Assembly: GCA_035529075.1 (NCBI GenBank)
Contig: DATKXK010000015.1
Coordinates: forward strand, 62,001 to 126,000
DNA: 64,000 nt
Direction: 5' to 3'
Origin: Acidobacteriota bacterium
Lineage (GTDB): Bacteria; Zixibacteria; MSB-5A5; GN15; FEB-12
The position numbers were made by a program, and so were the translations under genes. Below the pieces are notes generated by a model, which was not told the DNA's origin, did no database searches, and saw only the letters and a list, made by a program, of their open reading frames with translations. Positions 31,925-52,437 of this stretch are shown in pieces (positions within the stretch are counted from its first letter, which is position 1; each line of letters opens with the position of its first letter).

Positions 31925-32365
31925 ATGGCGAAATTCATCCTCGGTGCGACGGAAAGGATCAAACGGGATGATTCCATTCCCGTGGAACTGCTTCCGTCCA
32001 ACAAAACGCTCTACGCCGCGAAACTCAACAACGACGAAAACGCCGACGTGACACCGATGCGCTGCAACAACATGAAGGAGGTGTTCGAGAAGTATCGGCC
32101 CAACTTCTCGGTCGAGCTTGAGTCAGCGGAGGGGGAGCCGGTTAACGCTGATTTCGAGATCAAGGCGATGAAGGACTTCTCGTCAAAAGAACTCATCGAG
32201 AAGAACGACTACCTTCAGAAGACCTACTACAGCAAGGAGATCATGGCCGATCTTGACAAGCAGCTCAAGAAGAACGCCGCCCTGAAGAAAATCCTGGCGG
32301 ACAAGGAAAAGAAAGAAGCGTTGCTGAAAGTGGCCCAGTACTACGTTGACCTTCTGAGCGAGTAA
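31925..32365 (+). CDS. tssB: T6SS sheath small subunit TssB/VipA
   Basis: A 146-residue protein with the VipA-family opening (VELLPSNKTLYAAKLN), central FEKYRPNFSVELE and a C-terminal helix-rich tail (LKKILADKEKKEALLKVAQYY). It is somewhat short but standard for TssB. It pairs with TssC to form the contractile sheath. GAGGGAG precedes the start, and tssC follows 17 bases later, as in most T6SS operons. Confidence 0.85.
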   Translation: MAKFILGATERIKRDDSIPVELLPSNKTLYAAKLNNDENADVTPMRCNNMKEVFEKYRPNFSVELESAEGEPVNADFEIKAMKDFSSKELIEKNDYLQKTYYSKEIMADLDKQLKKNAALKKILADKEKKEALLKVAQYYVDLLSE

Positions 32366-32382: not shown

Positions 32383-33810
32383 ATGGGTGAAGAGGAAAAA
32401 CAACAGCCGCAACCGGAGGCCGCACCGGCCCAACCGGCGGAAGAAAAAGTAGCCGCTGAGCGACTCTCGGACAGCGATTTTACTTCCATCCTGGAGCAAT
32501 CGTTCGGGGACTTCAAGAAGCTTGCTTCGTTACTCCCCTCGTTCAAGACTGCCGACGGTGATCTCGTGCGCGGAGTCGAGTGGCTCGACCCCAAGAAGGA
32601 TTTCCAGCGCAAGGAATTCCTTAATAAGAAGGAATTCGGCACTCAGCGCCGGCTTTTAGCCGAACGCCTGAAAATCTGGTCGGAGTACCTCTCGCGCAGC
32701 GAGAATCTTGACGACGTTCGCAAGGCGCTCAACGAGTCGGCCACCAAGCTCGAGGAAAACCTCGGCAAGAACATGAAGAAGGTGCATCGAGCCAGTCGCG
32801 AACTCGAAGTCTCCTACCGGGCCATCGACAAGTTCTTCGCCAACGCGCAGGCGGAGCCGGACGAGAAGGTGAATGCCTACTTCTCCAACGTCAGCGCGGA
32901 AGAACTGACCGACCCGGACGACAAGGAGAAGTTCGAGCAGCTGACCACGGCGATCGCCGACCTGTACCGCGAGTGGAGCGTCAAGGAGTGCTTCTCGATG
33001 TGCGTCGTGCCCGGCTACCTCGGGAGCGTCGAGGCCATCGATACCTTTGGCCGGCAACTGGGTCTTCCGAACAAGGTGCATGTCCTGACCGACCTCCCCA
33101 ACTTCGAGAAGTTCGACGAAGTCATGGAGATGCTGGATGATCCCAACTACGCGAACCTGGCCGGAATCGACGACTTCAAGCAGTACGTGTCGGTGTTTGC
33201 CAATTACATGCTGGCGCGTAACGCCAACGCATACGAGGAGGAGGACATGTGGGTGCCGCCGTCGGCGGCGGTGGCCGGCAAGATGTACCAGGGTGACGTG
33301 ACGGTGGGTATGCAGCAGCCGATGGCGGGGTTCAAGCACGGCAAGATCAACGAGGCCAAGTACCTTCGGTTCAAGTGCAACCAGCCGAACGCCAGCAAGA
33401 TCAACGAGAAGGGTGTCAATCCGCTTGTCGATTTCGAGGCGGCCCCGGTGGCCATGGGCGCCGCCACGCTGTTTAAGAAGGAGACCTTTAACGTCTACTC
33501 AATCCGCCGGACCTACGACTACGTGTATAAGACGCTCCGCAACTACCTGAACAAGCAGACGTTCAGCGTGATTGACCAGAAGTTCGTCGACACCATGCGC
33601 CGTGACATCGACAAGTTCATGAAGGCCATCTCGGGCGGCGACAACATTCTTCAGGACTTCAAGGTCGACATTTTTGCCGATGAAGAGATGCGCAAGCGTC
33701 AGGAGATTGACGTCAAGGTGAGCCTTAATCCCAAGTACCCGGCCCGGACATTCAACATCGAGTTCGTCGCCTGGGGCGAGGGAGACCAGGTCAACGTGAA
33801 GGACAAGTGA
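32383..33810 (+). CDS. tssC: T6SS sheath large subunit TssC/VipB
   Basis: A 475-residue sheath protein. After a Q/P/A-rich N-terminus it follows the TssC pattern: LLAERLKIWSEYLSR, WVPPSAAVAGKMYQGDV, and late strands TFNIEFVAWGEGD. At 475 residues it is a little shorter than the usual about 490-510. The low-complexity head (QPQPEAAPAQPAEEK) is variable in this family. Start ATG 32383 follows a GAGGTG site. Confidence 0.85.
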   Translation: MGEEEKQQPQPEAAPAQPAEEKVAAERLSDSDFTSILEQSFGDFKKLASLLPSFKTADGDLVRGVEWLDPKKDFQRKEFLNKKEFGTQRRLLAERLKIWSEYLSRSENLDDVRKALNESATKLEENLGKNMKKVHRASRELEVSYRAIDKFFANAQAEPDEKVNAYFSNVSAEELTDPDDKEKFEQLTTAIADLYREWSVKECFSMCVVPGYLGSVEAIDTFGRQLGLPNKVHVLTDLPNFEKFDEVMEMLDDPNYANLAGIDDFKQYVSVFANYMLARNANAYEEEDMWVPPSAAVAGKMYQGDVTVGMQQPMAGFKHGKINEAKYLRFKCNQPNASKINEKGVNPLVDFEAAPVAMGAATLFKKETFNVYSIRRTYDYVYKTLRNYLNKQTFSVIDQKFVDTMRRDIDKFMKAISGGDNILQDFKVDIFADEEMRKRQEIDVKVSLNPKYPARTFNIEFVAWGEGDQVNVKDK

Positions 33811-34401: not shown

Positions 34402-36159
34402 GTGAGCGAATACGCTATGCCAAAACTTGAAACCAGCGCCGAATGTCGGGTAAAGATTGACAACGAGGAGATCAAACACACCGTCTCCTCGGTCAGGCTC
34501 GAACAGTGCATAGATGGACACCACGTCCTGCAGGTCGGGATCCGCGGGGGAGCGCAGGCCACGGGCGGCGCCAAGCTGGAGGATCCCAGCCAGTTTACCG
34601 GCTTTCTGGGAAAGACGATTTCGGTGACGATACAGCCGGTTGGGGATGTCGTTGACCCCTCGCTGACCATGCAGTTTGTCGGCATCGTCACCGAGGTGCG
34701 TCTGGACAACAGCGTTGACGAGTTCAATTGCGTCACCATTGTCGGGCGCAGCCCGACTATCGCCCTGGAGGGCGCGAAGCGTAACAGCTTCCACCACGAG
34801 GAGACCGGGAGCAGTATCGTCGAAGCGGTTCTTCGCGAGCACCAGATTACAGTCGGCTCAGTCGAATCGACCAAGAAAGCGCTTGAGTTCAGCGTTCAGT
34901 ATCGGGAGTCCGACTACGAGTATGTTATGCGCATCGCGTCGGAGAGCGGCTTGTTCGCGTTTTATGACGGCCGGCAGTTTTACGCCGTGAAAGCCAGCAG
35001 CGACACCGCCGCCGAAGTGACTTTTCGCGAGACCCTCGGAGTATTCTCGATGGGGCTCGGTACGGCTATCTCGGATTATCTCACGCAGGCATGGGACCAG
35101 GCCAATAAGCAGTCCCTCGAGGGAGATGTGACCGGGACGCCGAAAGGCTCCTCGCCCTCGGAGCTGTCGAGCATTTCCTTGAAGGCCTCGAGCACGGTTT
35201 TTGCCAAACCGGGTTTCACCGCGGCCGTCAAGGCCCCCGACATGGCCTCGGTCGACGCGGTGCTCGCACGGGCAAAGGAATCGTCCGTCGGGCGCATGGT
35301 CCGGTGCCGGGGCGAGTCAATTGTCCCCGCCGTGGCCGTCGGACACTGTGTTAAGATAAGCGGGATGGATAAGCTCGACGGCCTTTACTGGGTGCAGACT
35401 GTCACGCACGTCTTTGACGAGAGCGGCAAGTACCACAATACGTTTACGTGCACCCCCCTGGACGTCGCGTTCCCCCCCGCCATAGCTCCCGGACCTCCGA
35501 TCACGGACTTGCAGAGCGCCGTCGTGGTTGACAACAACGACCCGGAGAAGCTCGGGCGCGTGAAGGTGAAGTTTCCCTGGCAGGGTTCGGACGAAACACC
35601 CTGGATTCGCGTCATGACCCCGCAGGCCGGTGCCGAGCGCGGCTGGTACGGCATTCCGGAGATAGATGATGAGGTCCTGATCGGCTTTGAACACGGTGAC
35701 CCGGACCTGCCTCTCGTTCTCGGCTCCCTTTACAGCGGTAAGGACGCGCCGCATGGCGACACCGGCGGTGAGGACAATCTCGTCAAGCTGTATATGACCA
35801 AGGGCGGCAACCAGATCTGCTTCACGGACAAAGAGGGCGCCGAAGAGATCAGGATTGCTCAGAAGGACGGCAAGAACACGATCGTGGTGACGCTGGACGG
35901 TCCCGCCATCAGCATCGAGAGCCAGGGCGACATTACCATCAAAGGTGCAACCATCAGCCTTGAGAGCACCAAAGGCGACGTCACTGTCAAGTCTGCCGGC
36001 AAGCTGGTCGAAGAGAGTAAGGCGGATCTGACGCTCAAGGCGGGCATGAACCTCAAGAGCGAGGCTTCCGTCAACTACGAAATCAAGGGCGGGGCCAACT
36101 GCAAGGTTGAGGGCGGCGCCATGGTCAAAGTGCAAGGGGCCATGGTTCAGATAAATTAG
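34402..36159 (+). CDS. vgrG: T6SS spike protein VgrG (TssI)
   Basis: A 585-residue VgrG with the gp27-like N-terminal part (to about 360) and the gp5-like C-terminal beta prism: WIRVMTPQAGAERGWYGIPEIDDEVLIGFEHGD, shown here in sections, then repeated short strands (ISIESQGDITIKG, DVTVKSAGKLV). There is no extra C-terminal catalytic domain, so cargo probably rides on PAAR and adaptor proteins of the payload block. The start may be GTG 34402 or ATG 34417; neither has a strong ribosome site. Confidence 0.9.
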   Translation: MSEYAMPKLETSAECRVKIDNEEIKHTVSSVRLEQCIDGHHVLQVGIRGGAQATGGAKLEDPSQFTGFLGKTISVTIQPVGDVVDPSLTMQFVGIVTEVRLDNSVDEFNCVTIVGRSPTIALEGAKRNSFHHEETGSSIVEAVLREHQITVGSVESTKKALEFSVQYRESDYEYVMRIASESGLFAFYDGRQFYAVKASSDTAAEVTFRETLGVFSMGLGTAISDYLTQAWDQANKQSLEGDVTGTPKGSSPSELSSISLKASSTVFAKPGFTAAVKAPDMASVDAVLARAKESSVGRMVRCRGESIVPAVAVGHCVKISGMDKLDGLYWVQTVTHVFDESGKYHNTFTCTPLDVAFPPAIAPGPPITDLQSAVVVDNNDPEKLGRVKVKFPWQGSDETPWIRVMTPQAGAERGWYGIPEIDDEVLIGFEHGDPDLPLVLGSLYSGKDAPHGDTGGEDNLVKLYMTKGGNQICFTDKEGAEEIRIAQKDGKNTIVVTLDGPAISIESQGDITIKGATISLESTKGDVTVKSAGKLVEESKADLTLKAGMNLKSEASVNYEIKGGANCKVEGGAMVKVQGAMVQIN

Positions 36160-36168: not shown

Positions 36169-36543
36169 ATGGAATACTTAGCCTTACCGTTTGTGCTCCG
36201 GGAGGGGTACTTTCGCCGCGCCAGCCTGCACGAATCCATTACCTATTCGGTCGGGCTCATGCTGAGCACCCGCATGGGCCTGATGCAATTTGACCCGGAA
36301 TTCGGGTGCGAGATCTGGGGAAGGGAGTTCTCGGATCTGTACACCTCCAGCCGGGCGAACGTCCGGGCCAACCTGAGAAACACCATTGACAAGTTTGAAA
36401 AGCGACTCTACAACGTCTCGGTTTCGTTCACCAGCCCCTCCGGCAGCACCGCCCAGGCACTGGGCGTGCTGGTGAAAGTGAGCGGCAACTACCGGGATGG
36501 TGACGAAGAGCGGAAATTCGAGGGATCGTACCTGTTAGGCTGA
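36169..36543 (+). CDS. tssE: T6SS baseplate protein TssE (gp25-like)
   Basis: A 124-residue gp25-like wedge protein of the baseplate. The conserved core is YSVGLMLSTRMGLMQFDPEFG, followed by NLRNTIDKFEKRL and a late strand LGVLVKVSGNYRD. Length and order (after vgrG, before tssF) match T6SS baseplate clusters. Ten bases separate it from vgrG. Confidence 0.85.
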   Translation: MEYLALPFVLREGYFRRASLHESITYSVGLMLSTRMGLMQFDPEFGCEIWGREFSDLYTSSRANVRANLRNTIDKFEKRLYNVSVSFTSPSGSTAQALGVLVKVSGNYRDGDEERKFEGSYLLG

Positions 36544-36555
36544 CGGACAACTGTT

Positions 36556-38238
36556 ATGAATACCAAACCCAAGCCCGAAGAGCAAAAGTCCCGGGACCGG
36601 TTCTTTGCCCTGATGTATCAGGACCTGCGCGCCTGGAACCGCCAGATCCCCGAATCTCCCGAGCGCATCGACCCGGTGCTGCGAATACTGCTACAGCTTT
36701 TCGCATACCAGCTCACGGACATCGACAAGCGATTGGATGCCACCTGGGACGTGGCGACGAAGTCCCTGATCAAGTCCATGGCGCCCGAGGCCAAACGCTG
36801 GCCCATTCCCGCGTTCACCGTTATGCGCTGCGAGCCGGCCGACCCGGTGGTCGAAATCGATCCCCACACGAAATTCTTCTATAAAGAGAAGCGCGAAGGC
36901 GGGCAGACTTTTTTTTTCTGCTCGCAACGACAAGAAAAACTGATCGCTGCTCGCGTCAGGCACTCGCTGCTCGTTGACGGCAACACCGTTACCGACCTCA
37001 TCCCCTCCCCGGATAAGCCCCAGCCGGCGTCACGAACGGCCTCAGGCGTCGGCGGCGACCGCAGGACCTGCCTGCATGTTGCCGTTGAGTTCGGCGGCCT
37101 CGTCTCTGATTTCAGGGACGCCTCGCTGTTTCTCCGAGGTGACGACGACGTACTGAAACAGTTGCGCTGGGCGTACTGGTATCCCGGCGACAAGGCCGGG
37201 CAGTTCAGTAAGGACGCCGGTTTCTGCCCCGGGCTGACGTCCTCGGTCGAGGGCATGTTCTCTTACAACAGCGAGTCACCGGTAGACTGGGGCGGTCTAA
37301 GGACCAGCACCGACCTGTTCGGGCCGCTCGAGAACAGCTGGGTGGTGTTGCCGGAATCGTTCGCTGATGCGTGGGAGATAGGCCCTCCCGGCGACGGGTT
37401 GAGCGGCCTGCTGGACGCGGCGGGAGTGCAGCTTTCGTCGGCCGACCGGCGCTTCTACTGGATGCGCGTTGATCTCCCGCCCGGCGGCGACAAGCGGCGC
37501 CTCCATTCGCCGCTTGAGATGTTCTTCAACTGCTTTGCAGCCACGAACAGAAACGAACTTACCGTGTTCAAGCACACCGGTGGCAACCCGCTGGTGGAGA
37601 TCGAACTGCCCGAGCACCTGGACAGCATTCTCGACATCGTCAGCGTGATTGACTCACAGGGCACGGAATACCTGCCCCGGTACAGGATACACGGCGGCGG
37701 GGGAGCCAACTCCTACGCGCTCGAACAGCGCGATAACAGGCTGGTTCTCTGGTTCGATTTCTCGTCCGGCCTCGGCATTCCGCCCGATGCTCTGACCGTC
37801 ACCTACTCGGTCACCGCCGGCGTGGCTCCCAACGGTATCGCCGCGGGCAAGATTACAGAGTTGTACGAGAGCCACCCCGGCATACTGTCGGCTGCGAATA
37901 TTCTACCCGTGCAGGGTGCCATTCCGGCGAAGGGCGACCAGCAGTTGATCGCCGAGATCTCGGCGCGCCTGCGCAATCGTGATCGGGCGCTTACGTTTGC
38001 CGACATTTCATCATGGGTTATGGCTTTCGACCCTCGCATCCGCAAGGTCGAGTGTAAAAACGGCATCGAACGGGCCAGGCGGGGTGTGCGCAGGTGTATT
38101 GTCGTCACCGTCACCGTCAAACAGAAGGACATCTACTCCGAGGATGAAGTGGCGCTGCTGGCTCGGCGGCTCACGCGGTTTCTCAAGTCTCGTTCTCCCA
38201 TCAACACCCACTTCGCAGTGGAGATCAAGGCCACGTGA
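36556..38238 (+). CDS. tssF: T6SS baseplate protein TssF (VasA/ImpG-like)
   Basis: A 560-residue protein. The TssF opening is clear: YQDLRAWNRQIPESPERIDP, then LLQLFAYQLTDIDKRLD, then the PIPAFTVMRCEPA turn. TssF binds TssG in a 2:1 complex that forms the baseplate wedges with TssE and TssK. Twelve bases after tssE; its stop overlaps the start of tssG by four bases. Confidence 0.85.
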   Translation: MNTKPKPEEQKSRDRFFALMYQDLRAWNRQIPESPERIDPVLRILLQLFAYQLTDIDKRLDATWDVATKSLIKSMAPEAKRWPIPAFTVMRCEPADPVVEIDPHTKFFYKEKREGGQTFFFCSQRQEKLIAARVRHSLLVDGNTVTDLIPSPDKPQPASRTASGVGGDRRTCLHVAVEFGGLVSDFRDASLFLRGDDDVLKQLRWAYWYPGDKAGQFSKDAGFCPGLTSSVEGMFSYNSESPVDWGGLRTSTDLFGPLENSWVVLPESFADAWEIGPPGDGLSGLLDAAGVQLSSADRRFYWMRVDLPPGGDKRRLHSPLEMFFNCFAATNRNELTVFKHTGGNPLVEIELPEHLDSILDIVSVIDSQGTEYLPRYRIHGGGGANSYALEQRDNRLVLWFDFSSGLGIPPDALTVTYSVTAGVAPNGIAAGKITELYESHPGILSAANILPVQGAIPAKGDQQLIAEISARLRNRDRALTFADISSWVMAFDPRIRKVECKNGIERARRGVRRCIVVTVTVKQKDIYSEDEVALLARRLTRFLKSRSPINTHFAVEIKAT

Positions 38239-39149
38239 GTCCACGTTCTCCCAGCAGGATGCCGGACTTCTGCAGCCGGCGAAATCCGTTTCACTACACG
38301 ACCGCACTGAACACCCTGATGAAAATAGGAATTGATCTGTCCCGGGTCAGTCTCCTCGCGGTCGGCCATTTCGAGAACTACAAGGGTGAGGTCCACTGCC
38401 AGACTCCCGCGCCGGGCACTGAGATTACGCCCGAGACCCGGATCGCGCTGGAAGTCGGAAGTTCCAGCGGCACTGATTATGTGCCGTTCCAGTTCTTCTA
38501 CGGTATCAGGGGCGAGCACGTCGCCGGTGACGATTGGGAGACCAGGGCGCGCGAACTTCTGACTCCGTTCGACTCCTCCGTGATAAGGTACGAAGCGGCC
38601 ACCCAGTACCAGAAGCGCAAGTTCAATTTCGGCGTGGTCGACAGGCCGCAGCTGGTCCGCTTTCTGCAATTGTTCGGCTCTTCCGCGGAGACCGGCTGCG
38701 AGAACCTTCAGGAGTTGCTGTTCTGGGCGTCGGTCATGCCCACGTTCCACCTCTGGGCCGGGAATCCGCAGGCGGTTGCCGCCGTCCTCGAGCGGCTCAT
38801 CATGCATCCCGTCGGGATCATCGAGAACACCAGGGCCCGCTACGATATTCCCGAATCGTGCCAGTCCCGGCTCGGCGCCGCCACCGGTTGTCTGGGCGAG
38901 CAATTCGTGCTTGGCCGTTCGTTCAGCGAGTGCGACAGCAGCTACGAAGTGGTCATTCACGGCATCGAGCCGAAAGACGTTCCGGATTATCTGCCCGGGG
39001 GAGCGCGTCGCAAGAAGCTGGAGTGGGTCTTAAGTGTTTGTATGCCAAGCAACTTGGAACCCCGGTTTCGAATCGAAGCCAAGTCGAAGGCCGCCCGGAT
39101 CGGAAAGAAACGAGGCAAATGCTACCTGGGGTATTCCACGTATGCCTGA
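38235..39149 (+). CDS. tssG: T6SS baseplate protein TssG (VasB/ImpH-like)
   Basis: A 304-residue protein. The C-terminal block LGAATGCLGEQFVLG, the IEPKDVPDYLPGG turn, and the end LGYSTYA correspond to the family's conserved LG-rich region and its terminal LGWTSWL. The N-terminal half is divergent. I keep GTG 38235, overlapping the tssF stop; an internal ATG at 38259 is possible. It would join TssF in the wedge. Confidence 0.8.
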   Translation: MSPRSPSRMPDFCSRRNPFHYTTALNTLMKIGIDLSRVSLLAVGHFENYKGEVHCQTPAPGTEITPETRIALEVGSSSGTDYVPFQFFYGIRGEHVAGDDWETRARELLTPFDSSVIRYEAATQYQKRKFNFGVVDRPQLVRFLQLFGSSAETGCENLQELLFWASVMPTFHLWAGNPQAVAAVLERLIMHPVGIIENTRARYDIPESCQSRLGAATGCLGEQFVLGRSFSECDSSYEVVIHGIEPKDVPDYLPGGARRKKLEWVLSVCMPSNLEPRFRIEAKSKAARIGKKRGKCYLGYSTYA

Positions 39150-39243
39150 AACGAACGCACGTCGCGGCGGCGACGAATGTATTAGGCTTGACATTGAAAC
39201 AACTGAGTCATAGATTCCGGCCGTTGGCTCTGAGGGCAAGATA

Positions 39244-40695
39244 ATGAGCGACTTTAACTTATACTCGGTAAACTGGCAGGACGGGATGCTGATCACGCAG
39301 CAGCATCTGAAGGATCAGGAACGCTATTTCGAGAACCTGGCGCGGTGGTACGCCGTCAACGTGGGTGACAGCTACGGACTCATTCGTAAGGCCTTCTCGG
39401 GAAAGCCGGCCCTGAGTTTGAACCTGTCGCTCAGCGGCAACCGGCTCACCGTGGAGGTCGCTCGATGCCAGGCCCTGACGCCCGACGGGTCGTGCGTGGA
39501 AATCAACGAATCCACTAAGCCCGTCGTGAGGGCGCAGTGCGAGGTTCATGATACGCCTGTGAAGGTCTTCATTGCCGTCGACGCGACTACCAAGCATGAG
39601 GTGGGAGACCCGGACCCGAACGAAGACGTGCCGCGCATGCCGTACCTTAGCTGTAAATACTCTCTGCACCTCGGCACGCCGCCGAACCTTCCCGCCGGCG
39701 GCTTCCTCGAGGTGGCGAGGCTGGCTGTCGGCGGCAACGAGGTGGCACCGACACCCAACTTTTACCCCGCCTGTCTGAATCTGTTTGCCGATGAGCGGCT
39801 GCTTTCCAAGGCCAACGAGTTCCGGGATCGCCTTGAGAAACTGCTCTTTCTGTCGTCGCAGGCATATACGGCCGTCACCAGCGAGGACGGTACTCTGGCC
39901 GGGGAGAAAGGTGGTCTCCAGCTGGCCTTCAAGGAAACCGTGGAACAACTGGCATACCACCTGTCCGCCACCCTTGACACCTTCGTGGTCGACCGCAACG
40001 CCGCCCATCCGATTCAACTCGTGATTGCTTTCAGGCGGTTGTTTCGCCTGTTCTCGACCTCGCTCAATCTGCGATCCGGGTTGAAAGATTACCTCAATGA
40101 GCAGTTTTTCATCAAGGTCAAGAAGACGGACATTCGCGGGTTCATGTCGTCCTTGGACAGCTTCCTGCTTTCCCAGTATAACCATCAGGACCTGGGCGGG
40201 CATATTGACGCCATCGACAAACTTCTTGAAACGTTGCGCGGCGTGCTTGACTTTCTGGCCCAGGTCAAGAGCGGTCAGCTCGGTCCCCAGGCCGTCAGAA
40301 CCGATATGCTCACGTATCTGGGCAAAACCTACCGGTTGGCGGAGTATTCCAGCAGCCGGCTGGAGCAGGTCGGAGAGCTCAGTTACCTGGTTATCGATCT
40401 TGCCCAGGCCGGGGCTTTTACGAACACGGTGGTTCTCATAACGAAGGACCTGTTCAGCGCCGCTGAATGGTCCAGCATGCAGGTGCGTCTTGGTCTGAAC
40501 CAGGCCCGCGGGCTGGGCGAGACCGACCCGGTCGATATCGATACCATGACGTTTGCCAACAAGGTGGCACTGTACCCCAAGGATATGCTTGCGCTGTCGT
40601 CGGTCAATCAGCTTACGCTGATTTTCCGTGGAACCGCCGATGCCGAGAAGCTCTCCGGCTTGGGCGATGCGGACCTTATCGTGTACGGTGTGTGA
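39244..40695 (+). CDS. tssK: T6SS baseplate connector TssK (VasE/ImpJ-like)
   Basis: A 483-residue protein with the TssK head (VNWQDGMLITQQHLKDQERYF), the shoulder strands LNLSLSGNRLTVEV, and a helical middle ending in a receptor-binding-like C-terminal domain. TssK trimers connect the baseplate to the membrane complex through TssL and TssM. A GAGGG site precedes ATG 39244. Neighbouring genes preserve the E-F-G-K-L-M order. Confidence 0.85.
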   Translation: MSDFNLYSVNWQDGMLITQQHLKDQERYFENLARWYAVNVGDSYGLIRKAFSGKPALSLNLSLSGNRLTVEVARCQALTPDGSCVEINESTKPVVRAQCEVHDTPVKVFIAVDATTKHEVGDPDPNEDVPRMPYLSCKYSLHLGTPPNLPAGGFLEVARLAVGGNEVAPTPNFYPACLNLFADERLLSKANEFRDRLEKLLFLSSQAYTAVTSEDGTLAGEKGGLQLAFKETVEQLAYHLSATLDTFVVDRNAAHPIQLVIAFRRLFRLFSTSLNLRSGLKDYLNEQFFIKVKKTDIRGFMSSLDSFLLSQYNHQDLGGHIDAIDKLLETLRGVLDFLAQVKSGQLGPQAVRTDMLTYLGKTYRLAEYSSSRLEQVGELSYLVIDLAQAGAFTNTVVLITKDLFSAAEWSSMQVRLGLNQARGLGETDPVDIDTMTFANKVALYPKDMLALSSVNQLTLIFRGTADAEKLSGLGDADLIVYGV

Positions 40696-40716
40696 GAGGT
40701 AAAAATATAGTGTGCC

Positions 40717-41640
40717 ATGAGTGATATCAGGTCATACATCGACGACCTCTTCCGCTACATCGAGAGCTACGAGAAGAGTTACTCTGAATCCCAGACTGAA
40801 GCCTTTATCCAGACGTATCAGGGGGTTTATGCCGTTTTCCAGGCGTTGCGCCAGCAGCGTGACAAGGCCGTCATGGTCGACCAGTGTTTCCTGGGAAAGG
40901 TCAGGCAGTCGCCGCTTAACAGTTCGGATCTCCGCCAGTTGACCATACAGGTGCTCGTCAGCTTCTTTGAGTCGGAAGCCGATATCGACGGTCAGTCCAA
41001 TCAGGTATACTCGTACTGCCGCAGTTTGCGATCGGTCAGGCAGGATGTTCCGTACTTCGAAGCCAGCCTGATGCCGCTGCTGTTTCGCCAGGGCAGCCTC
41101 AACGGTAACTTCCGCCTGAATTCCTTCTTTCTGGCCGAGATCGCGCGTTTCATTCAGAAGTTCGGCAAACCGCTTCAGGTGGCCCTGGCGCCCGAGGCAT
41201 TTGCGGCGATGCCCGATCCGCTGAAGCTCCTGGAATTGGCGCGCCGACGCCTTGAGCTCGGCACCGATCTCATTGGCGACAGATCCAGTCTCGAGTTTCA
41301 CCTGCGTCAGGTCGACGCCTTTGAAAAGCTCAAGCAGCGGCACCGGTTGTTCGAGTCATACCTCAGGGATTGGGAATACCTGGTAACCAGGAGTTACTGG
41401 CTGACGGTCCGGAATTTCTTGGCCCGGTCGTGGGTTAAGATCAAGGGGGCGTTTTCCAGTTGGCGCTACTTCCGGCTCGTCCTCGGTCAGCGGAATCCCG
41501 CCTTCCTGTTCTATGGTGTCATCATCGTGGTCATGATCCTGCTGGCCATCCTTGTTCCGACGTGGTGGGGCAACTACGGGGACGGGCAGCTCGAGGATTT
41601 CAAGGAGCGGGTCGAGAGCGTGCAATCGGGCTCGAAGTGA
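40717..41640 (+). CDS. tssL: tail-anchored inner-membrane protein, likely TssL equivalent
   Basis: A 307-residue protein whose cytoplasmic helical domain (1 to about 261) is followed by a single membrane helix at about 263-284 (FLFYGVIIVVMILLAILVP) and a short outer tail. This is the topology of TssL, which contacts TssK. However, DotU-family core motifs are not clearly seen, and the PG-binding domain of some TssL proteins is absent. The call rests on position after tssK, topology, and the following GTPase gene. The ribosome site is weak. Confidence 0.65.
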   Translation: MSDIRSYIDDLFRYIESYEKSYSESQTEAFIQTYQGVYAVFQALRQQRDKAVMVDQCFLGKVRQSPLNSSDLRQLTIQVLVSFFESEADIDGQSNQVYSYCRSLRSVRQDVPYFEASLMPLLFRQGSLNGNFRLNSFFLAEIARFIQKFGKPLQVALAPEAFAAMPDPLKLLELARRRLELGTDLIGDRSSLEFHLRQVDAFEKLKQRHRLFESYLRDWEYLVTRSYWLTVRNFLARSWVKIKGAFSSWRYFRLVLGQRNPAFLFYGVIIVVMILLAILVPTWWGNYGDGQLEDFKERVESVQSGSK

Positions 41641-41686
41641 ACAAAACGGATTTTGCATTCGTGCAGGTGGCGGAAGGACGCCCATA

Positions 41687-43879
41687 GTGAAGCCGAAGAA
41701 CATATTCAAGATATTCCAGAAGGGTTCCAAGGCGGCGTCCCGCGCGAAGAAAAAGTGTCACGTGGAGTCGAAGTGGCCGTCGGGAATCCGGATCGGCATT
41801 TACGGCCACACCAACACGGGGAAAACGGTTTACCTCACGGTCCTGAACGAAGACTGCAAGATTTCCAAGAAACTTCAGATCGCCGTGTCGGATACGACCA
41901 CGGCCGGAGAGCTGCTGGCCAACTATCGTTCCATCTGGGGCCTGGGCATCAGCAGCGAAGTCGGCACCGTCGTTGATCTTCGGGGAGAAAAAAAGTTCCC
42001 GGAGGCGACCACGGGCCACAAGACCCTGTTGTTCAACGCCATTCTGGACCGCTCCAGCAAAATGCCGGTCGTGGCGCTGGACTACGACGGCAAGGCGGTC
42101 TCGATCTCCGAACAGAGCGATCTGAAGGACAAGGTCGAGGAGTTCATGGCCGGCTGCGACGGGATCCTCGTGTTTTACGACCCCAAGATGCTCGGCGCCG
42201 AGTGGCAGACGCAGGAATGTGCCGCCTCGTTTTCCCACATGCTGGAGCAACTGGCTCCGCTGCATCGGCGTCTGCCTGTCCCGGTCGGTCTGGTGGTCAC
42301 GAAAGCCGACATTCTGCCCGGCTTTACCGGAGACAACGAAACTGTTCTCATCAATCCGGAGGATGAGAATTTCCTCTCGCAGGATTTCGAAACGTTCCTG
42401 GAAAGGGTGCTGGCCAGCGACAAATTGACCCGCAATCAGGTCTGGGCGGGCACCGTGCGCGACGTTCTTGTCAAGCTTCAGGAGTTCCTGAAAGCCGTCA
42501 TCGGCCGGACTCTCAACTTCCAGATATTCTTCATTTCCTCCACGGGACAGCCGCCGGAGAAGATCGGCACCGAGATTGGGCGGTCGATCTACCAGCCGCC
42601 CAAGAAGATGACCCCGATTGGCGTGAAGGAACCGATGTACTGGCTCCTGCATGCAATCAAGCGCAATCGGAGAGTTTCCCGCCTGGGGGCCGTGGCACGC
42701 GTGGTTACGTACGCCGCGGTGATCTGGATTGCCGTCTGCTCGCTGCCTTACCTGTACCACTTCAAGTTCCTGCTGCCGCGCACCTATCAGGTCGAGGAGC
42801 GGATACTTGATCTCTACGAGGGCAACCCGTTTAACATGTCTGCGCAGGAGCGCACCGTCATCGGGACCGCTTATCGACGGTATCAGAACTCGCTGGCGGT
42901 CAGATGGATGTTCCCCGGGTTCACGGCGCCGGCCCAGCGCAAGATTGACATGTACCGTGAGTTCGACCTCGGCGAGGGGATCAAACGCCTGGACGGTCTC
43001 ATTGTGGGTTTCACGACCATTGTCTCTGATACCCTGCTCTGGCCCAAGGTCAATCCGAGCAATGATTCGCTGATGCCGACGCAGGCGTACGACCAGTTGA
43101 TGGCTCAGTTGGAGGCTTTTCACAAGGGAGAAGAGACGTCCATTCTCTTCGCGCGCAGCGGCCGCGTGCTGCAGTACCGCGATCTGTTTCATCAGGCCAT
43201 TATTCAACGCGATGACACCACGTACTGGAATACGATCAAACGGCAGGTGCAGCAGGATCAGAGCCTTTACGCTAAGCAGATCAGCCCCGCCGAGAAACAG
43301 TTCGGCGCGGTGTTGATGCAGTATGAGCTTGATAAAGTCAAGGAGGTCATCGCGGAAACGAAGGCCTTTGAGATGAGTGACTTGATCGACCGCGTAAATG
43401 GGTACACTGACCCGCGAGATCGCCTTGAAAAGGCCGTCAATGAATTGCAGGACGTGCTCTCGCAACTTGCCCCGTCGGACGTCAACAACCGAAACACTAT
43501 CCGCACCTACCTGCGGGCGGCCGAGAGCTGGTTCAAACGTCGAGCCTATACGTGCAAGGTCGAAACCCTGCCCGGACAGGATCACCTGCACATCGAAGTT
43601 ACGGACAACGGGGCGGACCCGACCTGGTCCGAACTCAACCAGATCTTTCAGGGTGACGAGACAAAAATCATCTGGGAACCGGGCCGGGATATCCATATTG
43701 CGCTTGACACCCTCGGGCACAACTGCCAATTGGGCAAGGACGCAAGCGAGAAGATTACGCTGTCGAAAAAATATTGCTTGTTTGAGATGGAAGGTGACCT
43801 TTCTTTCGACAATACCGGCAGGAAAATCAACGTTCGTTTCAAGCCCAGCCTGAGCGAGCAGTTGCCGGCGTTAAAGTGA
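41687..43879 (+). CDS. tssM: single-pass P-loop GTPase, likely reduced TssM equivalent
   Basis: A 730-residue protein starting at GTG 41687 after GGAAGGA. The N-terminal cytoplasmic part has Walker A GHTNTGKT at 40-47 (K46) and a TKAD nucleotide-specificity motif at 205-208. One membrane helix (about 339-360) leads to a periplasmic domain of about 370 residues with helix-rich repeats (ERTVIGTAYRRYQ, then AESWFKRRAYTC) and a final beta segment. TssM proteins of about 1100 residues carry an N-terminal two-helix hairpin before the GTPase; here that hairpin is missing and the chain starts almost directly with the GTPase. No TssJ lipoprotein is encoded nearby for the periplasmic domain to bind. 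Confidence 0.65.
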   Translation: MKPKNIFKIFQKGSKAASRAKKKCHVESKWPSGIRIGIYGHTNTGKTVYLTVLNEDCKISKKLQIAVSDTTTAGELLANYRSIWGLGISSEVGTVVDLRGEKKFPEATTGHKTLLFNAILDRSSKMPVVALDYDGKAVSISEQSDLKDKVEEFMAGCDGILVFYDPKMLGAEWQTQECAASFSHMLEQLAPLHRRLPVPVGLVVTKADILPGFTGDNETVLINPEDENFLSQDFETFLERVLASDKLTRNQVWAGTVRDVLVKLQEFLKAVIGRTLNFQIFFISSTGQPPEKIGTEIGRSIYQPPKKMTPIGVKEPMYWLLHAIKRNRRVSRLGAVARVVTYAAVIWIAVCSLPYLYHFKFLLPRTYQVEERILDLYEGNPFNMSAQERTVIGTAYRRYQNSLAVRWMFPGFTAPAQRKIDMYREFDLGEGIKRLDGLIVGFTTIVSDTLLWPKVNPSNDSLMPTQAYDQLMAQLEAFHKGEETSILFARSGRVLQYRDLFHQAIIQRDDTTYWNTIKRQVQQDQSLYAKQISPAEKQFGAVLMQYELDKVKEVIAETKAFEMSDLIDRVNGYTDPRDRLEKAVNELQDVLSQLAPSDVNNRNTIRTYLRAAESWFKRRAYTCKVETLPGQDHLHIEVTDNGADPTWSELNQIFQGDETKIIWEPGRDIHIALDTLGHNCQLGKDASEKITLSKKYCLFEMEGDLSFDNTGRKINVRFKPSLSEQLPALK

Positions 43880-43901
43880 CTACAGAGAGCAGGAGTTGAC
43901 C

Positions 43902-44432
43902 ATGCACGGTGACAGGGAGTGGATACAAGTCATTACAGGATGTGCTCTTCTGGGGCTGGTCTGTCTTTTCCCGTGCGGCACGGCCACGGCGGCAAGGGTA
44001 CAGCTTCCGGCAGGCACCGAGGTTAAAGTCAAGTTTGACCCCCTGGTGACGATCAATTCCGGCCGTTCGGTGGCGGGCGTTCCGTTGCAGGTACACCTGG
44101 CCGAGGCCATAACGGTCAGCGGCAGGGTTGTCGTTGAAGAAGGGGCAGTCGGAACGGCTACGATCATGGAAGTCGTCCAAGCCGGCCGCGGCGGCAAGCC
44201 GGGGAAGATATCCGTAAGTTTCGTGGAGTTGCAAACCAAGGGGCTGTTCAAGGCTCCCGACGATGCCCTGATCAAGCTCGCCGGTTCTGAGACCCGGGCA
44301 GGCAAGGGGAAAAAGCTGCTGTCCTACCTGTTCATTGCCGGGCTGTTCATAAAAGGCGGGCAGGCGGAAATCCCGACGGATCAAGTCTATATGGCCACTA
44401 TTGCCGAGACGATCATCCTGGAGAGCGAGTAG
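43902..44432 (+). CDS. secreted beta-rich protein at the end of the T6SS machine block
   Basis: A 176-residue exported protein (signal region WIQVITGCALLGLVCLFPCGTA, shown in part). Starting at ATG 43902 fits the GCAGGAG site. The mature part repeats short strands (VQLPAGTEVKVKFDP, VSGRVVVEEGAVGTATIMEV), matching a widespread group of secreted beta proteins in which a PAGT opening and a VxGxVVxxxGA block recur; their role is unknown. Although it fills the slot where TssJ often sits, its cysteines do not form a clear lipobox, so I do not call it TssJ. Confidence 0.5.
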   Translation: MHGDREWIQVITGCALLGLVCLFPCGTATAARVQLPAGTEVKVKFDPLVTINSGRSVAGVPLQVHLAEAITVSGRVVVEEGAVGTATIMEVVQAGRGGKPGKISVSFVELQTKGLFKAPDDALIKLAGSETRAGKGKKLLSYLFIAGLFIKGGQAEIPTDQVYMATIAETIILESE

Positions 44433-44590: not shown

Positions 44591-44672
44591 TAACCAGATA
44601 TTCTCGGCAGTAACGCTCCCGATGCGTTGCATGACGGGATTCACCTCCAAACCTTGTCAGAGGTGGTGTTCT

Positions 44673-48011: not shown

Positions 48012-48905
48012 TTACGGTTCTGCCGGAAGCATCACCGGAGGCAGCAGGTCGACGGTGCATTCATCGGTGTAGAATACGTCAAACGCAACACCGGCTGTGC
48101 CGCGGTCAATGAACGTGAATCCCGTCGTGTCAATGCCGACAACCGTCGTAAGCATGTTCGGCCAAACGTCGAGTCCCGCCTCGACCCTGAAGTACAGCCG
48201 TGCCAGCGTCGCGTCGCCCCGGGAATCAACCAGCGTCTTGCTCTGGTTTGTCTGCGAGACGGAAATGCCGTAGACCGATCCGGTGGTGTCGATAAGGTTT
48301 CCGTAGAAAAGGAGCGTGTCGTCGGCGGACGTATCGCCCTGGACGGCGCTGTCGAGGAAGAGCAGGTTGCCGTCCCACGTCACCCGAAACGAGATCCCGT
48401 ACAGTGAATCCACCTCGAACGCCTTTACGTCCACGGCGAAACTGGGGGAGTCCTCCAGCAGAACGTAGCGGGGGGTGAATTTCAGCAGCGGGACCTGCGC
48501 CCGCAGGCGTATGGTGATGGTGTTAATGCTGCCGGACGACAGGACGGCCTCCGCCGTGCCGGCGTAGACGGTAAGTCCGATGCGGTTGTCGATCGCCGCC
48601 ACCCTGAATTTCAGAAGCCGTCCGGCCGGCAGGCTGTCGATGGTGCCTTCGAGAAACCTCCCGGTCAGGGTAAGGGGCGCCTTGGCCAGTATCTCGCCCG
48701 TTCGTGGATCCGTGACGGTGACCTCGAACAGACCCAGGGCCGCTTCCAGGGCGGGCGAGGCGTCGTCGACGGTGAACGCAAGGCGCACCGCCTCGGTCGG
48801 CTCGCGGCCGATGAAGCTGTCCGAACAGCCGTACAGCATGGTCAGGAGCACGGTAACACCGGCGGCACGGGCGAGCAGCCGTTTTGCGCTAAACTCTCTT
48901 ATCAT
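48012..48905 (-). CDS. lipoprotein with cohesin-like domain
   Basis: A 297-residue protein with a lipobox (LLTMLYGCSD). The C-terminal half resembles a cohesin-type beta sandwich: LEDSPSFAVDVKAFEVDSLYG, then FRVTWDGNLLFLDSAV, ending with a LARLYFRVEAG strand. Cohesins bind dockerins, and the neighbouring surface protein at 44673 has a dockerin-like loop, so an attachment partnership is conceivable. First-half strands match no family I recognise. Last gene of the minus-strand cluster. Confidence 0.55.
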   Translation of the reverse strand: MIREFSAKRLLARAAGVTVLLTMLYGCSDSFIGREPTEAVRLAFTVDDASPALEAALGLFEVTVTDPRTGEILAKAPLTLTGRFLEGTIDSLPAGRLLKFRVAAIDNRIGLTVYAGTAEAVLSSGSINTITIRLRAQVPLLKFTPRYVLLEDSPSFAVDVKAFEVDSLYGISFRVTWDGNLLFLDSAVQGDTSADDTLLFYGNLIDTTGSVYGISVSQTNQSKTLVDSRGDATLARLYFRVEAGLDVWPNMLTTVVGIDTTGFTFIDRGTAGVAFDVFYTDECTVDLLPPVMLPAEP

Positions 48906-48923: not shown

Positions 48924-50051
48924 TTAGAGCGTGCCCACGAGGCTGGTGACGATTTGGAACCCGGTCAGATCGATTTTCCCACCGTCGGCCCGGCCCGTCA
49001 GGTATTTACCCCCCAACTCCAGATTGAATCGCTCGCCGAGACTTCGGCCGAGTGCAGCGCCGAGCGTTAGTGTATGAGAGTTGCCGAAACCCTCCTCGTT
49101 GCTTTCTATCAGCTTGAGCGACCCCGAGGGCGTGAGATACCAGGCCCGGGGGAGGAAGTAGGCGAAGTCCCCGGAGATCTGAAATTCGTTGCCGTAGAGT
49201 TTGAGTCGCTCGGTGACTTTCTCGGACGAGGCGTCATACCGCGAGTTGCGGCCGCGTATGCCGTACCGAAGCGACCCGCGAGCGCGGTGCCGTTCCATCG
49301 AATACTGGCCGCCGAGTTGAAAGTCAAGCTGCCTGCCCTGCCTGAACACCTTGGCGCCGTCCAGCTTGTCCGCCACGTAAGCGGTGAAGATGACGTCGCC
49401 CGTCCAGCTCATCCTTCCATGTTTCATCTCAGCCCCGACGCTGGCGTTTATCAGGTCGCCCGGGTCGTAGCTGTCGACGCCCTCATACGGTTCATACGCA
49501 CCGGTGTACTCGTACATGATGCCCGCGCCCGCGTTGACGGGTCCCAGGTTCCGGGCCGCCCCCGCGAGCAGGTTGAAACCGAACCCTTCTCCGTATCGCC
49601 GCATCGGAAAGTCGAGAAAGCTCTCCGAAAGGACATCGATCACCCTCCGCTCGTTCGTCAGGTCGAGCTTGCGCTTGCCGGTCGGCAGATTGAAACCGAG
49701 GCTGAGCAGGAACCGGTCATCGAGCAGCGACCGGTTGAACTGCACACGGAAATCCGTCAGACCGGTAACATCGGCCTTGCCGTCGGTGTCCTCCAGACTG
49801 TTGACGGCGCTGGCCACGTAAAACCGCATCTCGGTGTTGTCGCGGATCGGCAGCAATCCGCTCAGCGGTACCATGAACTGGCTGATCGTGAAGGCCTCGC
49901 CCGTGTCAGGGGTGAGCTTCCAGTACGTGTACATGGGTCCCGAGCTGCCGCTGGTCGGCTGTCCGCGGATGATCTGACCGGACGCCGACGACGCAAGCAG
50001 CACGAGGGCCGAAAGCACCAGCATGGTATGGCAAAGTCTCTTAATCGGCAT
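48924..50051 (-). CDS. outer-membrane beta-barrel protein
   Basis: A 375-residue exported protein (signal LVLSALVLLASSASG). Many alternating amphipathic strands with aromatic ends fit a barrel: MRFYVASAVNS, FRVQFNRSLL, FLLSLGFNLPTG, RARGSLRYGIRG, AWYLTPSGSLKLI, FNLELGGKYLTG. There is no plug or POTRA-like domain. Its start overlaps the end of the upstream TPR gene by 11 bases, suggesting that the two work together at the envelope. Confidence 0.6.
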   Translation of the reverse strand: MPIKRLCHTMLVLSALVLLASSASGQIIRGQPTSGSSGPMYTYWKLTPDTGEAFTISQFMVPLSGLLPIRDNTEMRFYVASAVNSLEDTDGKADVTGLTDFRVQFNRSLLDDRFLLSLGFNLPTGKRKLDLTNERRVIDVLSESFLDFPMRRYGEGFGFNLLAGAARNLGPVNAGAGIMYEYTGAYEPYEGVDSYDPGDLINASVGAEMKHGRMSWTGDVIFTAYVADKLDGAKVFRQGRQLDFQLGGQYSMERHRARGSLRYGIRGRNSRYDASSEKVTERLKLYGNEFQISGDFAYFLPRAWYLTPSGSLKLIESNEEGFGNSHTLTLGAALGRSLGERFNLELGGKYLTGRADGGKIDLTGFQIVTSLVGTL

Positions 50052-51342
50052 CGAGATCCCCCCTTACCACCACGCTCGCGTTGCGTTCGGCTTCGGGTGT
50101 CGAAATGGGCGTGGTTGTGTGCCTCGGCTGAACGCCAGTGGGAATGGTGATTGCACCCGAGTTCGTGACAACCCTCGTCAGCCGCTGGCCCATTATCAGT
50201 TCTGCGTTACGCGCGTCGCGTACGACGGCCGCTTCCACGTCGGCAGCCGTTACTCCTCCCTGCTGCATGGCCGATATGCCGGTGGCGGCGGACTCCATTT
50301 CCTGGCGCGCGGCGCTGAAGTTCTCGTCCTGGTTGACGGCTTGTTGAAACTCGTTCCGCGCCTCCTCGAGCAGGCCGCGGTTCCGATACTCCAGGCCGCG
50401 GCAATAGGACAGGAAGGCAAGGAACGACTCGGTCGGCACCTCCCTTATGGCATCCCGCTCGGCCGCCGTCAGTTCCACGCCCAGGTCGTCCAGGATATTG
50501 AACACGAGCTCCTTTTGCACCCGGAAGAAGTCGACGAGTTTTCCCTCGGAAGGTTCCGTTACGTCGGAGGTGCTGTCGACGGTGCTGACGATGGCCCCGT
50601 CCAGGCGGATACGGTCGTCTCCAATGCCCAGGACGCTGCCGGTGACGATTCGATTGCTGCCCAGCAGGCGTCCCATACGCGGCGCCTGGGTTGCATCCAC
50701 GTAGCCGCCGCCCGCCAGTTCCAGTTCCCGAAGGAGCGCGTCCACCTTGAGCCGCTCCACGAGCCGCAGAGAGCGCACGCTGGCCAGGTCGGCGGCCGTC
50801 AGTTCCGCCAAACCGCGCGCGATGGGCGCAGTTTCGGGAGGCAGAAGCGAGCCGTCAAAGTCGGCCACGGCGATTGTGTTGGGCGGTATGCTCGCGACGT
50901 CAAGCGACGATTCGTTTTCGATGGCCCGGGCCACGTCGCGGTCAATTGTCCGCCGGATGAGACCGTCAAGGTGCGCGCGCACGAGAGATTCGGTTTCTCC
51001 CCCCGGGCGCAGTTTCAGCGCCGATGTGTAGGCACGCACGGCCAGGTCGTCTTCACCCCGCGATTCCAGCACCAGGCCCAGGTACAGGTGCGTTGCGGGA
51101 TCGGCCTTGCCGGCCTTCTTGAGCGCATCCTCCGCCCGGATCAGATCCCCCGACTTGTAGAAGGCGATACCCAGTTCCTTCCAGGCGTCGACTTGTCGCG
51201 GGTCCTGGGCTATCTGCCGATAGAACACCTCGATGGCGCGCTCGTATTCCCCCTCGTCCACCAGCCTCCTGCCCTGGACGAGCAGACTCTGGGAACATCC
51301 CGACAACAGCAGAGCCGAGAGCAGTATGGTTCGTTTCAGCAT
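50041..51342 (-). CDS. TPR and CsgG/FlgO-like lipoprotein
   Basis: A 433-residue lipoprotein (LLLSGCS, C16). Residues about 20-130 are TPR repeats (EYERAIEVFYRQIAQDPRQ, EDALKKAGKADPATHLYLG). The middle resembles the CsgG/FlgO assembly domain (NTIAVADFDGS, LRLVERLKVDALLRELEL, LGSNRIVTGSVLG). CsgG-like proteins form or assist outer-membrane export complexes. The adjoining 51385 gene has the same two-part build, so they are likely paralogues. Confidence 0.65.
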   Translation of the reverse strand: MLKRTILLSALLLSGCSQSLLVQGRRLVDEGEYERAIEVFYRQIAQDPRQVDAWKELGIAFYKSGDLIRAEDALKKAGKADPATHLYLGLVLESRGEDDLAVRAYTSALKLRPGGETESLVRAHLDGLIRRTIDRDVARAIENESSLDVASIPPNTIAVADFDGSLLPPETAPIARGLAELTAADLASVRSLRLVERLKVDALLRELELAGGGYVDATQAPRMGRLLGSNRIVTGSVLGIGDDRIRLDGAIVSTVDSTSDVTEPSEGKLVDFFRVQKELVFNILDDLGVELTAAERDAIREVPTESFLAFLSYCRGLEYRNRGLLEEARNEFQQAVNQDENFSAARQEMESAATGISAMQQGGVTAADVEAAVVRDARNAELIMGQRLTRVVTNSGAITIPTGVQPRHTTTPISTPEAERNASVVVRGDLDAD

Positions 51343-51384: not shown

Positions 51385-52437
51385 TCAGGTGGCTAATGGA
51401 CGGTAAATATCCATTTTCCGCCTGGCTTCGACGAAATCCGGGTCCAGGTCGTGCGCCTGCTTGAAATACTCATAGGCCGTCTGGTAGTCGTACTTGTCCT
51501 CGAACTCCAGGCCCTTGGCGTACAGCGTCGTGGCGTCGAACGACTCAGTGCCGCCCATGTCGATAATCTTCTTGTCTTCGCCGGTCAGCGTGATGTCAAG
51601 CTCCTTGCAAAGATCTTCCACAAGCGCCTTCTCCAGCTTGAAATAATCCGGCTTGCCCTCGGTCGAGACCGAGGCCACGATTTCCGACGTCTCCACGCTG
51701 ACGGCGCGGACGACCACTCGGGTCTGCCGGTGGTCAATCTGCGTGAAGCTGCCGAAGACCATCAGGTGGGCGCTGAGAAGCTTGCCGGCCTTGATGGCTG
51801 AAGCCTGATCGACCAGGCCGGACTCGGCCAGCTCCTGCTCCTGGATGACGTACTCAATCTTGTCACGTTCCACCACTGACAGGGAACTGATCTTGGCGAA
51901 ATCGTACTGGAAAAAGCTCGCCAGGCCGGCCCCGAGAGCGCCAAGCTCTTCCTGGTACTTGCCCACTGAGAAGTTGTCAAAGGGCATGACCGCGATTGTC
52001 TTGATGTCGGTGGTGCCGGTGTCAGGGCAGGTCAGCGCGCCGGCGTTGCTGACGAGCGAATACCATTGCCGGCGCAGCCCCTTCGGCCAGATGTCGTGCG
52101 GCAGCCTGATCACGCACGGGCCGATGCTGGACATCTTCTTCAGGTAGTCGTAAGATTGCCCGACGTACTGCTGCCCCTTGCTGTAGTAAATGATACTAAG
52201 CACCTCGTAGATGGCAATACTGTCCTGGGCAGTCAGGTCCTGGCGTGCCAGCATCTGACTCGCGATCGCGATGCCTTCGTCGAACCTCCCGTAGATGCGG
52301 TGATCCAGCGCCTCCGCCAGCTTCTGAGCAATGTTCGCATCCTCCTGGGCCTGAACTGAGCCGTCAGCGAGCACGGAGAGCATAAGCACAAGCAGCACCA
52401 TGCCCAGTCTCGATGCATGATTGTAACACCTTTTCAT
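51385..52437 (-). CDS. CsgG/FlgO-like protein with TPR
   Basis: A 350-residue exported protein starting at ATG 52437, eight bases or so after GAGGAG; the longer frame upstream lacks a leader. Signal: LGMVLLVLMLSVLADGSVQA. CsgG-like segments: KTIAVMPFDNFSVGKYQEEL, LSVVERDKIEYVIQEQEL, LSAHLMVFGSFTQ. The C-terminus returns to a TPR-like helix pair (YDYQTAYEYFKQAHDLDPDF). Probably cooperates with the 50041 lipoprotein and the barrel protein. Confidence 0.65.
   Translation of the reverse strand: MKRCYNHASRLGMVLLVLMLSVLADGSVQAQEDANIAQKLAEALDHRIYGRFDEGIAIASQMLARQDLTAQDSIAIYEVLSIIYYSKGQQYVGQSYDYLKKMSSIGPCVIRLPHDIWPKGLRRQWYSLVSNAGALTCPDTGTTDIKTIAVMPFDNFSVGKYQEELGALGAGLASFFQYDFAKISSLSVVERDKIEYVIQEQELAESGLVDQASAIKAGKLLSAHLMVFGSFTQIDHRQTRVVVRAVSVETSEIVASVSTEGKPDYFKLEKALVEDLCKELDITLTGEDKKIIDMGGTESFDATTLYAKGLEFEDKYDYQTAYEYFKQAHDLDPDFVEARRKMDIYRPLAT

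What the first reader, a model, noticed from the sequence alone, without database searches (positions are those of the whole stretch)
40717..43879. Reduced T6SS membrane complex: tail-anchored L-like protein and TssM-like GTPase without N-terminal hairpin
The L-like protein has one C-terminal helix and no recognisable DotU core. The GTPase has one helix and begins near its P-loop, whereas TssM usually has two N-terminal helices plus one more. No TssJ lipoprotein or peptidoglycan-binding TagL is nearby. If functional, this would be a minimal membrane docking complex.
Basis: partly seen in the sequence, partly recalled or inferred. Interest (0 to 1): 0.72.

Follow-up and report, generated by a model that had tools for sequence, protein, structure and literature searches.

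The report
Alternative T6SS membrane anchor in Zixibacteria
An uncultured Zixibacteria bacterium carries a spring-loaded protein-injection machine (type VI secretion system) whose membrane anchor is built from a shortened relative of the usual anchor protein TssM plus an unrecognised tail-anchored partner, and the same pair is conserved across dozens of related uncultured bacteria.

Summary
Window 40717-41640 encodes a 307-aa tail-anchored helical protein (L). Window 41687-43879 encodes a 730-aa GTPase (M) with its P-loop at residue 40 and one membrane helix. Both are intact, follow tssK, and lie in a full T6SS tail/baseplate operon of an uncultured Zixibacteria. They are not a local decay product: the order tssB-C-hcp-vgrG-E-F-G-K-L-M recurs in about 35 loci of Zixibacteria, Krumholzibacteriota and relatives. 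All 42 full-length M relatives lack the N-terminal hairpin. M is detectably homologous to TssM from the second half of the GTPase through the third membrane helix (HHalign 92%, E 5e-7). Its modelled periplasmic part is helical then beta, but homology there is unproven. L has TssL's position and topology but no detectable DotU sequence similarity; its fold relationship is unresolved. The genome has no detectable TssJ, DotU, IcmF_C or TssN. 'Minimal' is premature: an exported protein (43902-44432) co-occurs with M almost perfectly, and a conserved lipoprotein / outer-membrane-barrel / TPR / CsgG-like / kinase module lies downstream. Best reading: an alternative TssL/TssM-like inner-membrane anchor on a Bacteroidota-type (T6SS-iii-like) tail. 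New variant of a known kind.

The parts
40717..41640 (+). L-like protein, 307 aa, helical cytoplasmic part, single C-terminal TM (residues 262-280), short tail outside: TssL-position, tail-anchored
   Evidence: no DotU
41687..43879 (+). M-like GTPase, 730 aa: N-terminal amphipathic helix, GTPase (about 33-300), TM 333-351 within a long helix 315-375, helical part 386-615, beta domain 619-718
   Evidence: HHalign to TssM 92%, E 5e-7, permutations; DO-GTPase2 and weak IcmF-related_N
43902..44432 (+). Exported protein X (about 176 aa, signal peptide, C-terminal hydrophobic segment), directly downstream of M; candidate third component
   Evidence: strong matches in 51 of 58 M-positive and 0 of 40 M-negative genomes; alignment; no known family
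39244..40695 (+). TssK (baseplate, divergent)
   Evidence: PF05936 1.8e-5, TIGR03353 1e-14
38235..39149 (+). TssG
   Evidence: PF06996 6.8e-17
36556..38238 (+). TssF
   Evidence: PF05947 4.8e-7
36169..36543 (+). TssE
   Evidence: PF04965 4.5e-13
34402..36159 (+). VgrG
   Evidence: PF04717, PF05954
33934..34338 (+). Hcp (Bacteroidota-type TssD)
   Evidence: PF17642 3.6e-21
32383..33810 (+). TssC (Bacteroidota-type)
   Evidence: PF17541 6.1e-71
31925..32365 (+). TssB
   Evidence: PF05591 8.8e-7
29342..31899 (+). TssH/ClpV-like ATPase split in two adjacent genes (29342-30796 Clp_N + first AAA; 30796-31899 second AAA + D2-small)
48012..48905 (-). Predicted lipoprotein (lipobox LYGC), member of a conserved downstream module
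48924..50051 (-). Predicted outer-membrane beta-barrel protein of the same module
   Evidence: a relative hits PF13505 weakly; present in 49 of 58 M-positive and 10 of 40 M-negative genomes
50041..51342 (-). TPR lipoprotein with CsgG-like domain
   Evidence: TPR, CsgG 4e-5, lipobox LSGC
51385..52437 (-). CsgG-like exported protein with TPR
   Evidence: PF03783 1.8e-14
52511..54256 (-). Ser/Thr protein kinase with one TM; candidate regulator
   Evidence: PF00069 1.8e-46

Best explanation
L and M are the inner-membrane anchor of an alternative T6SS membrane complex. M is a divergent, short TssM-like protein: a cytosolic GTPase domain held at the inner face by an N-terminal amphipathic helix (inferred) and one membrane helix equivalent to TssM's third, then a periplasmic stalk of helical domains ending in a beta domain. 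L is a tail-anchored helical protein that takes TssL's place and docks the TssK-F-G baseplate (inferred). The GTPase may gate assembly or baseplate docking (inferred). The exported protein X is proposed to bind M's periplasmic tip or the outer membrane in place of TssJ, possibly helped by the lipoprotein / OM-barrel / TPR-CsgG module (inferred from co-conservation). Shown: gene content, order, conservation, topology by hydropathy, TssM homology over the GTPase-TM3 region, genome-wide absence of detectable canonical parts. Not shown: complex formation, docking, function.
For: Full T6SS tail/baseplate operon immediately upstream. The tssK-L-M order equals tssK-tssL-tssM in canonical clusters fetched here. 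Order and lengths conserved in about 35 loci of several phyla. M profile vs TssM profile: 92%, E 5e-7, 199 columns running from before the G4 TKxDxxxGF motif through TM on TM; score 69 vs maximum 26 in 60 permutations; YcjX and Der controls 0.1% and 22% against TssM. 10 of 21 M also hit IcmF-related_N weakly. AlphaFold model (pLDDT 82.5) gives GTPase, long TM helix, helical part, C-terminal beta domain. X co-occurs with M, 51/58 vs 0/40, Fisher p 1e-20. No DotU, IcmF_C, TssJ or TssN detected in the genome.
Against: M's GTPase scores better against DO-GTPase2 (21/21 members; some orthologs above the Pfam cut-off) than against IcmF-related_N (all below cut-off). The periplasmic part shows only weak, collinear similarity to TssM's C-terminus (5 of 149 and 1 of 60 permutations as good), and no solved TssM appeared among the fold matches shown, which the GTPase domain filled. 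L matches nothing known. M occurs without L or TssK nearby in a few loci (L035, L063, L064). No experiment exists.
Confidence: 0.7

Rival explanations
1. M is not a TssM descendant but a DO-GTPase2-type membrane GTPase (the family of GAP1-associated conflict systems) recruited by a T6SS, with L as an unrelated helical partner; resemblance to TssM is convergence plus shared ancient GTPase ancestry.
For: PF19993 hit in 21 of 21 M, above cut-off in several orthologs. In the distant subtype M is followed by a GAP1-N2-like gene (best 1.1e-4, just below cut-off), the partner of DO-GTPases in PMC7159879.
Against: HHalign to TssM runs through the G4 motif into the TM helix and far exceeds generic GTPase controls. 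Gene position equals tssM and the domain order resembles TssM's. In the main group no GAP1 neighbour was found.
Confidence: 0.2
2. L and M are accessory or regulatory envelope proteins, and the true membrane complex is encoded elsewhere or is the downstream OM module alone.
For: An outer-envelope module and kinases lie nearby. L has no DotU similarity.
Against: No other TssJ/L/M or TssN detected genome-wide. L-M are fixed directly after tssK across the clade, whereas the OM protein also occurs in 10 genomes without M and in some genomes far from M.
Confidence: 0.08
3. A degenerate, non-functional T6SS whose anchor genes are decaying remnants.
For: Short M; missing TssJ and hairpin.
Against: Intact frames, conserved G motifs (P-loop in 39 of 42), about 40-54% identity over full length across genera and orders, conserved synteny.
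Confidence: 0.02

Closest known systems
TssL-TssM-TssJ membrane complex of T6SS-i (Pseudomonadota)
   Same: tssK-tssL-tssM gene order; tail-anchored partner (TssL is a C-tail-anchored protein, PMC3426401); GTPase followed by a TM helix, with profile homology from the G4 region to TM3
   Different: M is 730 vs about 1,150-1,240 aa, has no N-terminal TM hairpin and scores no PF06761/PF06744; L has no DotU similarity; no TssJ
T6SS-iii of Bacteroidota (TssNQOPR complex, PMC10781749)
   Same: TssC and Hcp belong to the Bacteroidota-type Pfam families PF17541 and PF17642; canonical TssJ/L/M absent
   Different: No TssN in the genome; uses a TssM-like GTPase, whereas Bacteroidales loci lack tssM orthologs
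Acinetobacter T6SS complex without TssJ (PMC10564176)
   Same: TssJ is absent and other envelope proteins appear to compensate
   Different: Acinetobacter uses TsmK and a TssM GS-linker, with an otherwise canonical TssL and TssM; no TsmK-like gene was noticed here, though it was not searched for
DO-GTPase2 / GAP1-N2 systems (PMC7159879)
   Same: DO-GTPase2 is the nearest Pfam match of the GTPase domain; a GAP1-N2-like gene follows M in the distant subtype
   Different: Encoded in a T6SS operon, with a long periplasmic domain after the TM; no GAP1 next to M in the main group

Membership tests
TssM/IcmF | IcmF-related_N GTPase domain above the curated cut-off | tested here: not met
   14.3 bits vs cut-off 25; 10 of 21 relatives match, best E 0.0019
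TssM/IcmF | Profile homology to TssM over GTPase and TM3 | tested here: met
   HHalign 92%, E 5e-7; permutations 0/60
TssM/IcmF | Two N-terminal TM helices before the P-loop | tested here: not met
   0 of 42 relatives; canonical TssM here have N-terminal TM helices
TssM/IcmF | Periplasmic IcmF-related and IcmF_C domains | tested here: not met
   No Pfam hit, while all 13 canonical TssM hit both
TssM/IcmF | Periplasmic fold like solved TssM | tested here: inconclusive
   Model is helical then beta, but the GTPase filled the fold-search list; weak C-terminal collinearity
TssL/DotU | DotU domain PF09850 or profile similarity | tested here: not met
TssL/DotU | Single C-terminal tail anchor, gene between tssK and tssM | tested here: met
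   40 of 41 relatives have exactly one TM, 22-30 residues from the C-terminus; order
TssL/DotU | DotU helical-bundle fold | tested here: inconclusive
   All-helical model, pLDDT 84; no convincing PDB match
T6SS (contractile tail plus baseplate) | TssB, C, E, F, G, K, Hcp, VgrG, PAAR, TssH | tested here: met
T6SS-iii | Bacteroidota-type TssC and Hcp | tested here: met
   PF17541 and PF17642
T6SS-iii | TssN (membrane complex TssNQOPR) | tested here: not met
   No PF17555 match in the genome at E 1; TssO, P, Q, R not searched genome-wide
DO-GTPase2 | PF19993 above cut-off | tested here: inconclusive
   Window M 25.1 bits vs cut-off 27, 29.1 when neighbouring hits in the frame are added; several orthologs above
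DO-GTPase2 | Adjacent GAP1 gene | tested here: not met
   The gene after M is X, with no GAP1 domain; a GAP1-N2-like gene follows M only in the distant subtype

The most novel reading that the evidence does not exclude
A previously undescribed T6SS type in Zixibacteria, Krumholzibacteriota and related phyla: a T6SS-iii-like tail anchored by a hairpin-less TssM-like GTPase, a new tail-anchored family and an exported third protein, with a GTPase domain bridging TssM/IcmF and the DO-GTPase2 family. This would link T6SS anchors to GTPase-GAP1 systems and show an intermediate between T6SS-i and T6SS-iii anchors.
Probability: 0.35. Interest if true: 0.75.

Novelty: new variant of a known kind. Interest (0 to 1): 0.56.

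Why it matters
The tail of the T6SS is phage-derived, but the membrane complex is a bacterial addition whose origin and minimal requirements are open. Bacteroidota-type tails are known with a wholly different anchor (TssNQOPR). Here a Bacteroidota-type tail is paired with a TssM-like GTPase that lacks the hairpin and the canonical periplasmic Pfam domains. This natural experiment shows which parts of TssM may be dispensable and makes the evolution of T6SS anchors testable. The literature library held no description of a T6SS from these phyla, though it covers open-licence papers only.

Tried and rejected
DotU homology of L: rejected at sequence level; the fold search gave only weak helical matches such as proteasome or TFIID subunits, and no TssL among the rows shown, which does not exclude a DotU fold. 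Direct BLASTP of M to E. coli TssM found only the G4 motif, E 0.064. GAP1-N2 as a TagF homolog: HHalign 0.1%, 48 of 100 permutations as high, rejected. X: a memory-based resemblance to VirB10/TrbI C-terminal domains was not supported by Pfam, NCBIfam or PDB and is not claimed. M is absent from the plasmid collection. TssC and TssK against PDB found no T6SS protein. Searching canonical TssL by genome handle failed, so canonical TssL/TssM were taken from E. coli W and plasmids of environmental bacteria.

Full report
What is there. The window lies in a 3.04-Mb, 21-contig genome (completeness 100%, contamination 0.6%). Its closest named relatives are Zixibacteria, so the organism is very probably an uncultured member of that phylum. 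Window 29342-44432 is a T6SS operon: a split ClpV-like ATPase, TssB, TssC, Hcp, VgrG, TssE, TssF, TssG, TssK, then the two genes of the finding. TssC and Hcp match the Bacteroidota-type families PF17541 and PF17642. A PAAR protein lies at 18161-19246.

The two genes. L (40717-41640, 307 aa) has one strongly hydrophobic helix at 262-280 and about 27 residues beyond it. M begins at GTG 41687 behind a good ribosome-binding site and has 730 aa. Its P-loop starts at residue 40 and its only membrane helix is at 333-351.

Not a local decay. In 58 of 98 related genomes M is found, mostly full length at 40-54% identity. In the named collection 42 loci came from Zixibacteria, Krumholzibacteriota, Latescibacterota, Eisenbacteria and unplaced MAGs. 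Wherever the contig reaches far enough, the order TssB-C-Hcp-VgrG-E-F-G-K-L-M recurs, except in L035 and in L063/L064, where M stands without L. Among 42 full-length M, none has a membrane helix before the P-loop; 13 canonical TssM have N-terminal helices and the P-loop at 112-150. The G motifs are conserved.

Is M a TssM? BLASTP sees only the TKxD...GF motif. Profile-profile comparison of 21 M with 13 TssM gives 92% probability, E 5e-7, over 199 columns from the second half of the GTPase through the membrane helix, TM on TM. Column permutation of the larger M profile never exceeds 26 against 69 observed. TssM against other GTPases gives 0.1% (YcjX) and 22% (Der, P-loop only); those controls used single sequences, which weakens the contrast somewhat. 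The M model (pLDDT 82.5) shows a GTPase, one long helix through the membrane, helices 386-615 and a beta domain 619-718; helical-then-beta is also the layout of the canonical TssM periplasmic part (own knowledge). The periplasmic similarity by sequence is only suggestive. Pfam assigns M's GTPase best to DO-GTPase2, 21 of 21 relatives, with IcmF-related_N second, 10 of 21 and all below cut-off, whereas canonical TssM hit IcmF families strongly and DO-GTPase2 essentially not. So M works like a TssM and shares ancestry with it over GTPase-TM3, but fails the formal membership tests (hairpin, IcmF_N cut-off, IcmF_C).

Is L a TssL? It has the position and the tail anchor, but no sequence similarity. 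Its fairly confident all-helical model has no convincing match in the PDB. This neither proves nor excludes a DotU fold. I treat it as a functional equivalent by inference.

What replaces TssJ? No TssJ, DotU, IcmF_C or TssN is detectable in the genome. First, protein X (43902-44432) has a signal peptide, follows M directly, and has strong matches (E < 1e-10) in 51 of 58 M-positive and 0 of 40 M-negative genomes; several exceptions are genomes where M sits on a broken contig or belongs to the distant group. Second, a convergent module at 48012-54256 encodes a lipoprotein, an OM-barrel-like protein, two TPR/CsgG-like exported proteins and a Ser/Thr kinase. It lies next to the T6SS in about 20 loci; its OM protein is in 49 of 58 M-positive and 10 of 40 M-negative genomes, sometimes far from M. 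Genomes here are related, so the Fisher p-values overstate independence.

Mechanism (mostly inferred). L and M form an inner-membrane base. M's GTPase face and L dock TssK-F-G; M's periplasmic stalk reaches outwards; X, perhaps with the OM module, provides the outer contact. Nucleotide state may control docking, and the kinases may regulate firing as in canonical systems, several of which have a Ser/Thr kinase close to tssM.

Wider context. In a distant subtype (L022, L065-L068) the M-type GTPase is followed by a GAP1-N2-like gene, the usual partner of DO-GTPases (PMC7159879). TagF was tested as a homolog of it and rejected. Twelve of 132 genomes of the phylum carry a canonical IcmF_C protein, so both anchor types exist in this phylum.

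Limits. Paper searches covered only open-licence papers.

Noticed in passing
window 29342-31899 (+): ClpV/TssH-like unfoldase is split into two adjacent genes (Clp_N + first AAA; second AAA + D2-small).
   Followed up: no
L022, L023, L065-L068, downstream of M: In the distant subtype the M-type GTPase is followed by a GAP1-N2-like gene (PF20013, below cut-off), linking T6SS anchors to DO-GTPase/GAP1 systems.
   Followed up: partly
L021/L064 and L063: M-like GTPase (688 aa) next to a PAAR gene but without TssK or L nearby, beside beta-propeller (WD40-like) exported proteins.
   Followed up: partly
G001, G030, G062, G087, G089, G101, G126-G131 (genome handles): Some genomes of the same phylum carry canonical IcmF_C (TssM); G062 carries both that and the M-type protein.
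   Followed up: partly
window 19279-23289 (+): 1336-aa protein of no Pfam family directly after a PAAR gene; a relative lies near the T6SS in L026. Candidate T6SS cargo.
   Followed up: no
window 44622-47906 (+): 1094-aa beta-helix protein with FlgD_ig / Por_Secre_tail C-terminal sorting-like domain right after the T6SS operon; similar genes beside it in L048, L051, L055, L056.
   Followed up: no
window 11922-13679 (+) and 52511-54256 (-): Two membrane-anchored Ser/Thr kinases flank the cluster.
   Followed up: no
L035: M and X present but no other T6SS gene within 10 kb upstream, unlike most relatives; rearrangement or assembly chimera.
   Followed up: no
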